This document shows, in pieces, positions 22,642-27,343 of a DNA stretch of 32,346 nucleotides (its first letter is position 1; each line of letters starts with the position of its first letter). This stretch comes from Bifidobacterium breve (lineage in GTDB: Bacteria; Actinomycetota; Actinomycetes; S36-B12; UBA5976): the NCBI GenBank assembly GCA_945866135.1, contig CAMBGF010000007.1, forward strand, positions 1-32,346. The letters run 5' to 3'. A program made the position numbers and the translations under genes. The notes beneath the pieces were generated by a model, which was not told the origin of the DNA, made no database searches, and worked only from the letters and a program-made list of their open reading frames with translations.

Positions 22642-23400
22642 TTGTGTCGGTTATTTGCTTGGCATTCCAATGAAGAAATTTCCTTAGCGCAAGCACTCGG
22701 TGAAGATTTCCCCACTTTTACGCAGTTAAGTTCTTTACATCGTGATGGTTGGGGTATGGCCATTAAGAATCTTGACGAGATTAAAGTTGAGCGGGATGTA
22801 AAGGCAGCAATTGATTCAAGTTTGTACGCAAACGTATCTGTAAACCTCGTTTCATCGGATGCAATTACGCACTTGCGGTGGGCGACTGAAGATATTTCAG
22901 TTTGTATTCCAAATACCCATCCATTCATTAAGCAAGGTCCAAATAGTCCGATAGCGTTTTGTCATAATGGCGGCGTTGCAAGAGGGGCGCAGCTCACATC
23001 ACTAATAGCTGATGACTTGCTTGGCGAACTCGAGGGTGATACCGACAGTGAACAATACTTTGCGGCATTAATTACTAAACTTCGCGAATCTAATGGAGAT
23101 TTCGTAATGGCTTATAAAGAATTAGTCAAAGATCTAGCACCGATTCATTACACCTCGGTAAATGCCTTGATTTTGACGCCAGAAGAACTAGTAATAGTTT
23201 GCCAGCACAAGCCAGAAAATCTTTCCACAGATCTCGAAGCCGATTATTACGAGTTGTTTTGGCAAACAACTAACGACATCACGTCTGCCTGGTCATCTGG
23301 AATTAGACCTGACTCTCCCAACTTTCATAATTTAAAAAATGGATCACTACTTCACATAGATACAAACACGGGAGTAGCCACTACTCATGAAATCGGATAA
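22642..23400 (+). CDS. Class II glutamine amidotransferase, EgtC-like
   Basis: TTG start giving MCRLFAWHS with Cys2 nucleophile; SSLHRDGWGMAI; THLRWATEDIS...NTHPF...FCHNGGV. Confidence 0.88.
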   Translation: MCRLFAWHSNEEISLAQALGEDFPTFTQLSSLHRDGWGMAIKNLDEIKVERDVKAAIDSSLYANVSVNLVSSDAITHLRWATEDISVCIPNTHPFIKQGPNSPIAFCHNGGVARGAQLTSLIADDLLGELEGDTDSEQYFAALITKLRESNGDFVMAYKELVKDLAPIHYTSVNALILTPEELVIVCQHKPENLSTDLEADYYELFWQTTNDITSAWSSGIRPDSPNFHNLKNGSLLHIDTNTGVATTHEIG

Positions 23401-24774: not shown

Positions 24775-25581
24775 ATGCGCGCAAAATTCTGGCTTATAGC
24801 CATAAGTGGAATCAGCTTTCTGGTTGCATTAATTATTGCTGCTCAAGTTTCAAGCTCATTTCAGAACTTATTTTCAAGCAGTTCCACTTCGGCAACCCAA
24901 ATTGGATGTCAGCAAACTATAACTATTGGCAAATCAGTAGCCGGTACAGAAATTGAAGCCTGCCAGATTGCGGGTTCTTCAATCGATTCGCAAAATGCTC
25001 TCCTTGTTATTGGCACGATTCACGGCAACGAACCAGATGGCATTCGAGTAGTGGATGAGTTGCTGAAGAATCCAGCTCCTGAAGGCACAGAAATTTGGGT
25101 TATACGCGACGGTAATCCTGATGGCTCAGAACTAGTAACAAGACGCAACGCAAACAAAGTCGACATAAATCGAAACTTTCCAATCAAGTGGCTGGCATCA
25201 GATCCAAGCCTTCGAACTTACAGCGGACCAAGTCCGGCCAGCGAGCCAGAGACTGTTGCACTAATGAACGCCGTTCAGAAAATTAAACCCACTCGGATCG
25301 TGGTTTTCCACCAGCCTTTTGACCAAATTGATTGCCCGCCCGAGCGAACCACGCAGATAAGCGATCGCCTATCTGGGCTAACTGGTTACCGCTCAGAATG
25401 TATTCCAGGAGAAAAATCTGGATCAGTTACCAACTCTTACACTGGAACTTTCACGATCTGGGTCAACAGTACATTTCCTAAAACTACAGCGCTTACTTTC
25501 GAACTGGGATTAACAACAATGGATGAGAAAATCAAAACTATTTCAAAAGCGCTTCGAACCATAGCCCCTGAGGTGCCATAA
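24775..25581 (+). CDS. M14-family zinc carboxypeptidase / murein-peptide-amidase-like, N-terminal signal anchor
   Basis: N-term TM (FWLIAISGISFLVALIIAA); GTIHGNEPDG (HxxE), DGNPDGSELVTRRNANKVDINRNFP, VVFHQPFD, ALTFELG. Confidence 0.87.
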   Translation: MRAKFWLIAISGISFLVALIIAAQVSSSFQNLFSSSSTSATQIGCQQTITIGKSVAGTEIEACQIAGSSIDSQNALLVIGTIHGNEPDGIRVVDELLKNPAPEGTEIWVIRDGNPDGSELVTRRNANKVDINRNFPIKWLASDPSLRTYSGPSPASEPETVALMNAVQKIKPTRIVVFHQPFDQIDCPPERTTQISDRLSGLTGYRSECIPGEKSGSVTNSYTGTFTIWVNSTFPKTTALTFELGLTTMDEKIKTISKALRTIAPEVP

Positions 25582-25600: not shown

Positions 25601-27343
25601 GTGAAAATTTCTGATCATGAATTCATGTCAAGAGAATTGCCGCAAGGTAGTGCGCTAGTTGCCCAAGGTCGTGAACTAGGGAAGCAACTAACTATGGGCG
25701 TTAGTAATTTCTGTAAATTTCATGGAGTTAAATCTGAGCTCGAGTACAAACAGAAAATGGCTCGTGAAGGCAGAACTATGACCGCTCTAACTATCGGTTT
25801 AACTGACTGGCCAGAGACAAAAAAAGGTCTGCAATACATTCAGCAAGAATCTGCTGACCGGGGCTTTTACATTGACAGATTCATAATTGCGTTAGACAGA
25901 CGAATGGGTTTGCCAGCAGCTATGCGAGCCGCAGCAATAAAGGAAACAGGCCCGATGTTGAACTCTGATCAAGAGTGGCTGGAAGTGGCACAGTCCGTTC
26001 AAATCCAGCCCCACATGGGCGACATGATGATCGGTTCACCAGCATCACTTGATAACACTCGCAGGGCGCTTGAAGCTGGCGTAAATTACATTGGAAATCT
26101 GTCCCAGTTTGCTTGGAAATATCCAGGCTGGCCCGGCGATGATGTAGCGCAAATGAGTGAAGTTGTTACAGCCCTTGGTTTGATGGCGAGCAAGGCCGAT
26201 GAAGGCGCAGTTGTTCACTCGTATTTAGATGATGGCTTTCCGGCGCAGTTTGGTGATTATTCCTCATACCTAGGATGGGCAAAATTCGAGCGTTATGTTG
26301 TCGAGGATCTAATCGGGGCAAAATTAGCTCACGCTTACGGCGGGCTTACACATGACCCAATAACTAAAACCATTGTCACGATGGCAATTGAGTCACTTCG
26401 ACCAGATGATGTTTGCTCATCCTTTTACTTTGGTAACACGACGCACTACACGCAAAACATCGAGAGTAATTACGGCGTATTAGGTATTGACGTGCTTTAC
26501 ATGATGTTGGCAGATCGCCGCTTAAGAGCAGGTTCATCGATAATGCCCGTACCCGTAACTGAGGCAATTAGAGTGCCAACGCCTGAAGAAATTATCGACG
26601 TTCAAACTATTGCGCATAACACCAAGGCCAAACTTGATTCAATATACGCAGTTACAAATTGGCAATCCCTTGAGGCTACGAGCCAAGAATTAGTAGCGAA
26701 TGGAAATCGATTTTTCGATAATTTGATCAATGGATTGGCAGACCTTGGAACTGACATTAAAGATCCATTGCAACTCTTGCTCGCAGTGCGAAGGTTGGGG
26801 CCTAGCGCAATCGAAAAGAAATTTGGAGTAGGAACTCCTACCGAAGACCCACTTTTCGATGGCTACGAACCTCTGGTGCCCACTAATGTCTTGCAGGATT
26901 TTCTTGCTGAACGAACAAAAATTCGGGCAGCGGTTCGGCCAAGCAACTGGATTTTGAATAAATCTCACAAACCAGTAATTGCCTCCAGTGATGTTCATGA
27001 AATTGGCATGAGATTAGTTATCGATGCTGTTGAAAGCCTGGACATCAAGCCAGTAATCGGAACGGTTGGAATTGATCCCGATGAGTTAGCGGAACTTGCC
27101 CTGCAAGAAAATGCAACCGCCGTCTTAATCTCAACTCATAATGGAATGGCGCTAAGTTTTGCCCAGAATTTGCTTGCCGAACTTTTGCTCCGAGACATAT
27201 CGCCCCAGGTAATTATTGGTGGGCGCCTAAATCAGGAAATTGAAGGTTTCGACATGCCAGTTGATGTGACCGAAGAGTTAAAGGCTTTAGGAATAGATAT
27301 TTGCTTAGACCTGAAGGACCTCGCCAAAATAATTAAAAACTAA
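25601..27343 (+). CDS. Putative cobalamin-dependent mutase: TIM-barrel-like N-terminal region fused to C-terminal B12-binding domain
   Basis: C-terminal SSDVHEIGMRLVIDAVESLDIKPVIGTVGIDPDELAELALQENATAVLISTHNG...QVIIGGRLNQ has the DxHxxG base-off motif and B12-domain spacing. N-term IQPHMGDMMIGSPASLDNTRRALEAGVNYIGNLSQF loosely resembles glutamate-mutase E-type barrels. Confidence 0.72.
   Translation: MKISDHEFMSRELPQGSALVAQGRELGKQLTMGVSNFCKFHGVKSELEYKQKMAREGRTMTALTIGLTDWPETKKGLQYIQQESADRGFYIDRFIIALDRRMGLPAAMRAAAIKETGPMLNSDQEWLEVAQSVQIQPHMGDMMIGSPASLDNTRRALEAGVNYIGNLSQFAWKYPGWPGDDVAQMSEVVTALGLMASKADEGAVVHSYLDDGFPAQFGDYSSYLGWAKFERYVVEDLIGAKLAHAYGGLTHDPITKTIVTMAIESLRPDDVCSSFYFGNTTHYTQNIESNYGVLGIDVLYMMLADRRLRAGSSIMPVPVTEAIRVPTPEEIIDVQTIAHNTKAKLDSIYAVTNWQSLEATSQELVANGNRFFDNLINGLADLGTDIKDPLQLLLAVRRLGPSAIEKKFGVGTPTEDPLFDGYEPLVPTNVLQDFLAERTKIRAAVRPSNWILNKSHKPVIASSDVHEIGMRLVIDAVESLDIKPVIGTVGIDPDELAELALQENATAVLISTHNGMALSFAQNLLAELLLRDISPQVIIGGRLNQEIEGFDMPVDVTEELKALGIDICLDLKDLAKIIKN

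What the first reader, a model, noticed from the sequence alone, without database searches (positions are those of the whole stretch)
25601..27343. Putative novel B12-dependent mutase with fused cobalamin domain
The C-terminal ~120 aa carry DVHEIG (DxHxxG, codons 26990-27007) and the spacing of a base-off/His-on B12 domain. The N-terminal ~430 aa look barrel-like, with segments (GSPASLDNTRRALEAGVNYIGNLSQF..., DDGFPAQFG...) only loosely reminiscent of the glutamate mutase E subunit, which is normally separate from its B12 subunit. I cannot assign it to methylmalonyl-CoA mutase, MetH, a radical SAM enzyme or the PLP aminomutases. With a PLP enzyme and an amino-acid-type transporter it suggests an uncharacterised carbon-skeleton rearrangement of an imported amino acid.
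Basis: partly seen in the sequence, partly recalled or inferred. Interest (0 to 1): 0.8.

Follow-up and report, generated by a model that had tools for sequence, protein, structure and literature searches.

The report
Unnamed B12-dependent amino-acid isomerase family
The gene encodes a real, widespread but unnamed vitamin-B12-dependent isomerase whose relatives in other bacteria sit among hydroxyproline-breakdown genes, which suggests that the family opens the ring of this collagen and plant-wall amino acid by a B12 radical reaction not yet described.

Summary
The ORF is real (25601-27343, 580 aa, GTG start). The N-terminal barrel (about 1-430) matches nothing in Pfam, NCBIfam or the PDB by sequence. 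The C-terminal domain is a base-off/His-on type B12 domain in all 36 relatives examined. The AlphaFold model is good (pLDDT 92). Its best PDB fold matches are the adenosylcobalamin mutases: methylmalonyl-CoA mutase for the whole chain, glutamate mutase E and lysine 5,6-aminomutase for the barrel. So "novel fused B12-dependent mutase" is supported.

The proposed link to the neighbouring PLP enzyme and transporter is not supported: relatives of the same genus lack that island beside the gene. In other phyla the family sits beside GlmL-type chaperones, ProC, proline-racemase/4-hydroxyproline-epimerase genes and, in Firmicutes, a dedicated second OrtAB (2-amino-4-oxopentanoate thiolase).

Best explanation: an AdoCbl isomerase of 4-hydroxyproline-type ring amino acids. 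In the OrtAB clade it probably isomerises 4-hydroxyproline (C5H9NO3) to 2-amino-4-oxopentanoate (C5H9NO3) by moving the ring nitrogen. The main rival is B12-dependent dehydration of hydroxyproline to P5C. The window's own clade lacks this gene context and differs at active-site strands, so its substrate is the least certain part.

The parts
25601..27343 (+). fused AdoCbl-dependent isomerase (580 aa)
   Evidence: ORF; 41 relatives; model pLDDT 92.3
25601..26875 (+). catalytic TIM barrel with helical tail (residues 1-425), no named family; conserved K50, R93, QPHxGD (136-141), HSYLDDG (206-212), T280, PVTEAxRxP (318-326)
   Evidence: alignments A2/A3; fold
26969..27340 (+). C-terminal Rossmann-like B12-binding domain (about residues 457-580)
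   Evidence: PF02310; PDB profile hits
26990..27007 (+). DVHEIG, the DxHxxG cobalt-ligand motif (residues 464-469)
   Evidence: His466 invariant in 36 members
27131..27145 (+). STHNG loop (residues 511-515) of the B12 domain
   Evidence: N514, G515 invariant
27218..27223 (+). GG (residues 540-541), second conserved loop of the B12 domain
   Evidence: invariant
24775..25581 (+). M14 zinc carboxypeptidase-like gene, 19 bases upstream; the most often conserved immediate neighbour in the genus
   Evidence: PF00246; M14 directly upstream in L040, L042, L043, L045 but not L044 or L046
17913..24751 (+). LIV-type ABC transporter, class-II GATase and class-III aminotransferase; an island of this genome, probably not part of the mutase unit
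   Evidence: absent between rho and mutase in L043-L045

Best explanation
The protein is an AdoCbl-dependent isomerase of the mutase superfamily: a glutamate-mutase-like barrel fused to a His-on B12 domain. Shown by computation: the fold, the B12 domain, the conserved family and the gene contexts. Inferred: homolysis of AdoCbl gives a 5'-deoxyadenosyl radical that takes a hydrogen from a small amino acid in the barrel. The family most likely acts on proline-ring amino acids, above all 4-hydroxyproline. In the Firmicutes clade the most likely reaction is abstraction of H at C4 and migration of the ring nitrogen from C5 to C4 (ethanolamine-ammonia-lyase-like logic on a vicinal amino alcohol). 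The resulting hemiaminal then collapses to open-chain 2-amino-4-oxopentanoate. The adjacent OrtAB would cleave this to acetyl-CoA and alanine, and Alr/Ald would take the alanine to pyruvate. A GlmL/MutL protein services the cofactor where present. My layered estimates: AdoCbl mutase-superfamily enzyme 0.93; hydroxyproline/proline-type substrate for the family 0.6; this exact reaction in the OrtAB clade 0.45; the same reaction in the window's own protein 0.25-0.3. The stated confidence is for the fold/cofactor claim plus a hydroxyproline-type substrate for the family.
For: Fold. B12 domain. GlmL-family gene 14-102 bases upstream in most of the Firmicutes loci, a Hyphomicrobiales and a Solirubrobacteraceae. 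Firmicutes order GlmL, mutase, OrtA, OrtB, ProC with a HypD-like glycyl radical enzyme and a racemase/epimerase gene. Three genomes have one OrtB with ornithine aminomutase and a second OrtB beside this gene; G444 has only the latter and no OraE; G453 has OrtAB and no OraE. The OrtAB-linked epimerases carry the published hydroxyproline-epimerase residues Ser, His, Cys/Cys (PMC1964878). Proline-racemase-family genes lie near the mutase in 9 of 29 loci against 0.18 expected (loci not independent). Phyllobacterium: ProC plus mutase beside a 4-Hyp operon. L048: cis-3-Hyp dehydratase-like genes and two racemase-family genes downstream. Substrate and proposed product have the same formula (arithmetic). 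Adenosyltransferase present in the window's genome.
Against: No biochemistry. OrtAB linkage is known only in one clade plus one unlinked genome. ProC adjacency in Proteobacteria, Chloroflexi and Deltaproteobacteria-type genomes is not explained by this reaction and fits dehydration to P5C better. L061 and L076 carry a proline-type racemase (Phe, Leu), not a hydroxyproline type. The window's clade has TALTIG for YHAHIG on strand 1 and other changes on strands 6 and 7, no hydroxyproline genes nearby, and no GlmL in its genomes. The known B12 ammonia-lyase is of a different family and base-on (own knowledge).
Confidence: 0.5

Rival explanations
1. B12-dependent 4-hydroxyproline dehydratase: the radical is made at C5, the C4 hydroxyl leaves, and P5C is formed for the adjacent ProC to reduce to proline. 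This would be an AdoCbl counterpart of the glycyl radical enzyme HypD.
For: A ProC-family gene is the immediate neighbour in L049, L051, L054, L058, L063, L074, L078 and the Phyllobacterium plasmid. L061/L076 combine ProC, proline-type racemase, GlmL and mutase without OrtAB. HypD itself is encoded near a P5C reductase, and GRE/B12 parallels are known (PMC7077986).
Against: Does not explain the dedicated second OrtAB. In Firmicutes a HypD-like GRE already sits in the cluster. Known B12 eliminases are base-on and of another fold (own knowledge). The proteobacterial ProC copies tested score below the ProC cut-offs, so their substrate may differ. PMC7077986 states that Hyp dehydration has no precedent in B12 enzymology.
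Confidence: 0.2
2. Glutamate-mutase-like carbon-skeleton mutase on an unrelated amino or dicarboxylic acid, including the possibility that the family contains 2-methyleneglutarate mutase, also a single-chain enzyme of similar length (own knowledge).
For: E. callanderi context of 2-oxoacid oxidoreductase, aminotransferase and glutamate dehydrogenase suggests amino-acid fermentation without hydroxyproline genes.
Against: No sequence-profile similarity to GlmE and no PF06368 match. No nicotinate-fermentation genes recognised in the neighbourhoods inspected. The 2-methyleneglutarate mutase sequence could not be compared with the tools held.
Confidence: 0.2
3. PLP- and B12-dependent aminomutase of the ornithine/lysine type acting on the imported amino acid suggested by the neighbouring transporter.
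For: Barrel resembles lysine 5,6- and ornithine 4,5-aminomutase; OrtAB link.
Against: The only lysine invariant in 36 members is K50 in the N-terminal part; none is invariant in the B12 domain, where these enzymes hold PLP (own knowledge). OraE coexists as a separate gene. The transporter island is not conserved.
Confidence: 0.05

Closest known systems
Glutamate mutase (GlmE + GlmS, with GlmL)
   Same: Barrel fold (Foldseek top hit for the barrel), His-on B12 domain, GlmL-family accessory gene in several relatives
   Different: Single fused chain; no detectable sequence similarity in the barrel; other neighbours; no PF06368 match
D-ornithine 4,5-aminomutase OraSE and its pathway
   Same: AdoCbl superfamily fold; OrtAB and a GlmL-type protein beside it in Firmicutes
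   Different: No invariant lysine in the B12 domain for PLP; no OraS or Ord needed in the proposed route; separate gene in the same genomes
Methylmalonyl-CoA mutase family
   Same: Barrel then B12 domain on one chain; best whole-chain Foldseek hits
   Different: About 12% identity over the fold match, no Pfam or NCBIfam match in the barrel, no CoA-type neighbours
Ethanolamine ammonia-lyase EutBC (by reaction logic only)
   Same: Proposed 1,2 shift of an amine onto a carbinol carbon
   Different: No Pfam match of any member to that family; here a His-on B12 domain
HypD, glycyl radical trans-4-hydroxy-L-proline dehydratase (PMC7077986)
   Same: Possible substrate; ProC neighbour
   Different: Unrelated protein and cofactor

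Membership tests
AdoCbl-dependent mutase superfamily (class I/III, His-on) | C-terminal Rossmann B12 domain with DxHxxG and GG | tested here: met
   H466, G540, G541 invariant
AdoCbl-dependent mutase superfamily (class I/III, His-on) | TIM-barrel catalytic domain of the mutase type | tested here: met
   Foldseek: glutamate mutase, lysine aminomutase, MCM, ornithine aminomutase lead the list
AdoCbl-dependent mutase superfamily (class I/III, His-on) | AdoCbl binding and radical turnover | not testable with these tools
   needs purified protein; an adenosyltransferase is present in the genome
Glutamate mutase E | Match to PF06368 or profile similarity to GlmE | tested here: not met
Methylmalonyl-CoA mutase | Match to the MM-CoA mutase barrel model | tested here: not met
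   MM-CoA mutase models are matched only through their B12 domain (window protein residues 463-541); no barrel model in Pfam
PLP-dependent B12 aminomutases (OraE, KamDE) | Conserved PLP lysine in the B12-domain subunit | tested here: not met
   only K50 invariant, outside the B12 domain
Corrinoid methyltransferases | Helical cap B12-binding_2 domain before the B12 domain and best fold match to MetH-type proteins | tested here: not met
   no such Pfam match; MetH ranks below the mutases
Ethanolamine ammonia-lyase | EutB/EutC sequence families | tested here: not met
   no Pfam match
2-methyleneglutarate mutase | Homology to the Eubacterium barkeri enzyme | not testable with these tools
Hydroxyproline-catabolic enzyme (proposed) | Genomic linkage to hydroxyproline genes | tested here: inconclusive
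   met in several phyla, not met beside the gene in the window's own clade

The most novel reading that the evidence does not exclude
First AdoCbl-dependent enzyme that opens a proline ring: an isomerase turning 4-hydroxyproline into 2-amino-4-oxopentanoate by migration of the ring nitrogen, feeding OrtAB to acetyl-CoA and alanine without any redox step.
Probability: 0.35. Interest if true: 0.82.

Novelty: new variant of a known kind. Interest (0 to 1): 0.6.

Why it matters
Only a handful of AdoCbl isomerase reactions are known (own knowledge), and this is a phylogenetically wide family (Actinomycetota, Pseudomonadota, Bacillota, Chloroflexota, Synergistota, Thermodesulfobacteriota, Myxococcota) that public annotation calls only 'cobalamin-dependent protein' or 'hypothetical protein'. 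If it acts on hydroxyproline, a major amino acid of collagen and plant and algal walls, it would be a B12 route beside the oxidative pathway and the glycyl radical enzyme HypD. It would also tie freshwater, gut and soil use of hydroxyproline to B12 supply. The prediction can be tested with one purified enzyme and a mass spectrometer.

Tried and rejected
Single-sequence searches of Pfam, NCBIfam and PDB gave no barrel assignment. Profile comparison with Pelosinus GlmE found nothing. The LIV transporter and class-III aminotransferase looked like a shared module with Chloroflexi L048, but the aminotransferases are only 28% identical and hit different NCBIfam models (window: aspartate-aminotransferase/racemase type; L048: glutamate-1-semialdehyde aminomutase type), and the binding proteins are 20% identical; rejected as an orthologous unit. 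Co-occurrence of proline-racemase-family genes with the mutase in the window's taxonomic family was 7/7 carriers against 14/36 non-carriers, but within the genus it is 7/7 against 11/16, so I give it little weight. The own-genome racemase-family gene has a Ser/Thr pair and lies on another contig; not informative. Literature searches for a B12 enzyme of hydroxyproline, or for hydroxyproline together with 2-amino-4-oxopentanoate, found none; subscription journals are mostly not held, so this is weak.

Full report
Observation. The ORF 25601-27343 (+) encodes 580 aa from a GTG start. PF02310 matches residues 463-542 at E 3.8e-6, below its curated cut-off for this one member. The first ~430 aa match no Pfam, NCBIfam or PDB sequence.

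Relatives. Two full-length homologues at 36-37% identity appeared in other families of the phylum, and six in the genus at 70-85%. A pattern scan of one genome for each of 85,462 species gave 41 loci in Actinomycetota, Pseudomonadota, Bacillota, Chloroflexota, Synergistota, Thermodesulfobacteriota and Myxococcota. The alignment of 36 members (A2) has invariant H466, N514, G515, G540, G541 in the B12 domain and invariant R93, D141, D211, T280, E321 and R324 in the barrel. Every member carries the B12 domain. The family profile finds the B12 domains of mutases and MetH in the PDB, only in that region. Divergence is concentrated at third codon positions. Public annotation of homologues on rhizobial plasmids, where there is any for a full-length copy, is 'cobalamin-dependent protein' or 'hypothetical protein'.

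Fold. AlphaFold gives pLDDT 92.3 and pTM 0.92. Foldseek ranks methylmalonyl-CoA mutases, glutamate mutase E, ornithine and lysine aminomutases first, and MetH below them. For the barrel alone (residues 1-425, pLDDT 93.1), glutamate mutase E (E 4.6e-11, TM 0.63) and lysine 5,6-aminomutase lead. Profile comparison with one GlmE found nothing, so the relation is visible in structure only.

Context in the window. Directly upstream is an M14 peptidase-like gene. The LIV transporter, class-II GATase and class-III aminotransferase lie further upstream. In congeners L043 and L045 the order is rho, M14, mutase, and in L044 rho, mutase, so that island is not part of a conserved unit. The genome holds a cobalamin adenosyltransferase and CoA-mutase components. 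It and five congeners hold no GlmL/MutL.

Context elsewhere. A GlmL-family gene is 14-102 bases upstream in most of the Firmicutes loci, in Hyphomicrobiales L047 (nearest outgroup of the window's clade) and in Solirubrobacteraceae L062. In Pelosinus, Tissierella and a Bacillota MAG (L060) the mutase is followed by OrtA, OrtB and ProC (OrtA, OrtB and ProC above curated cut-offs in Pelosinus; the OrtB copies above cut-off); in a further MAG (L059) OrtAB lies about 6 kb downstream. A HypD-like glycyl radical enzyme (below the HypD cut-off) is in the same stretch in L059, L067 and L080, and an epimerase gene in all four. Pelosinus also has alanine racemase and alanine dehydrogenase. Three genomes hold two OrtB genes, one with ornithine aminomutase and one beside this mutase. 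G444 has OrtB only beside the mutase and no OraE. G453 has OrtAB and no OraE. The ornithine pathway that normally supplies OrtAB is described in PMC8803604.

Hydroxyproline signature. Proline-racemase-family genes occur in 9 of 29 neighbourhoods against 0.18 expected from gene number and genome size (the loci are not independent, about four lineages). In the OrtAB group the epimerases have Ser and His at the positions that PMC1964878 uses to tell hydroxyproline epimerase from proline racemase, with both catalytic Cys; the Pelosinus gene is cut by the end of the locus, so only its Ser and first Cys could be read. L061 and L076 have Phe and Leu, the proline-racemase type. In Phyllobacterium the ProC-mutase pair sits beside a GntR gene and an operon of racemase family, aldehyde dehydrogenase, FAD oxidoreductase, DapA-type and amino-acid transporter genes, which corresponds to the epimerase, oxidase, deaminase and dehydrogenase of the 4-hydroxyproline pathway named in PMC4113996. 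Chloroflexi L048 has cis-3-hydroxyproline dehydratase-like genes.

Mechanism. 4-hydroxyproline and 2-amino-4-oxopentanoate are isomers, and the oxygen is already on C4. Abstracting H at C4 and shifting N from C5 to C4 gives a hemiaminal that opens to the ketone. This is inference. The reaction needs neither PLP nor redox, and no PLP lysine is conserved in the B12 domain. The dehydratase rival explains the ProC neighbours better and OrtAB worse. Both may hold in different clades, since strands 1, 6 and 7 vary by clade.

For the window's own protein the substrate remains open: same catalytic core (QPHxGD, HSYLDDG, PVTEAxR), but TALTIG in place of YHAHIG and no hydroxyproline genes next to it. 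A hydroxyproline-type cluster (Ser/Cys racemase-family gene, DapA-type and aldehyde-dehydrogenase-like genes, the latter two judged by eye from their sequence) exists elsewhere in congener G425, so the substrate class is plausible in the lineage.

Verdict. Novelty: a new family within a known superfamily, with a testable new reaction.

Noticed in passing
L040 (CAMCXZ010000056.1): Contig titled Bifidobacterium breve MAG carries a mutase 90% identical to the window's protein, with the same M14 neighbour; the organism name of this MAG is probably wrong.
   Followed up: no
L103 9749-10714 (Rhizobium lentis plasmid p1): Only the C-terminal part of the mutase (query residues 353-574) remains, annotated as a DUF1349 protein beside IS66 transposase genes; looks like a decayed copy.
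   Followed up: no
L080 8574-11729 (Tissierella sp. P1): The mutase and its GlmL gene are each split into two frames, so both may be broken or contain sequencing errors.
   Followed up: no
L062 14746-19692: Two genes resembling acetone-carboxylase-type subunits (hydantoinase A; hydantoinase B fused to acetone carboxylase gamma) lie about 3 kb downstream of the mutase, which could suit a methyl-ketone product.
   Followed up: partly
L067 4615-6969 and L059 13550-15904: Glycyl radical enzyme related to HypD but at about half the HypD cut-off score (558 of 1100 bits for the L067 copy); possibly a dehydratase of another hydroxyproline derivative.
   Followed up: no
L116 8792-10586 (Desulfobacterales G453): OrtAB without any ornithine aminomutase found in the genome, beside an N-acyl-D-amino-acid deacylase-like gene and a dipeptide-type transporter.
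   Followed up: partly
window 22642-23400: Class-II glutamine amidotransferase-like protein (GATase_4), weakly like the gamma-glutamyl hydrolase EgtC, next to a class-III aminotransferase and LIV transporter; a possible gamma-glutamyl-amine pathway.
   Followed up: no
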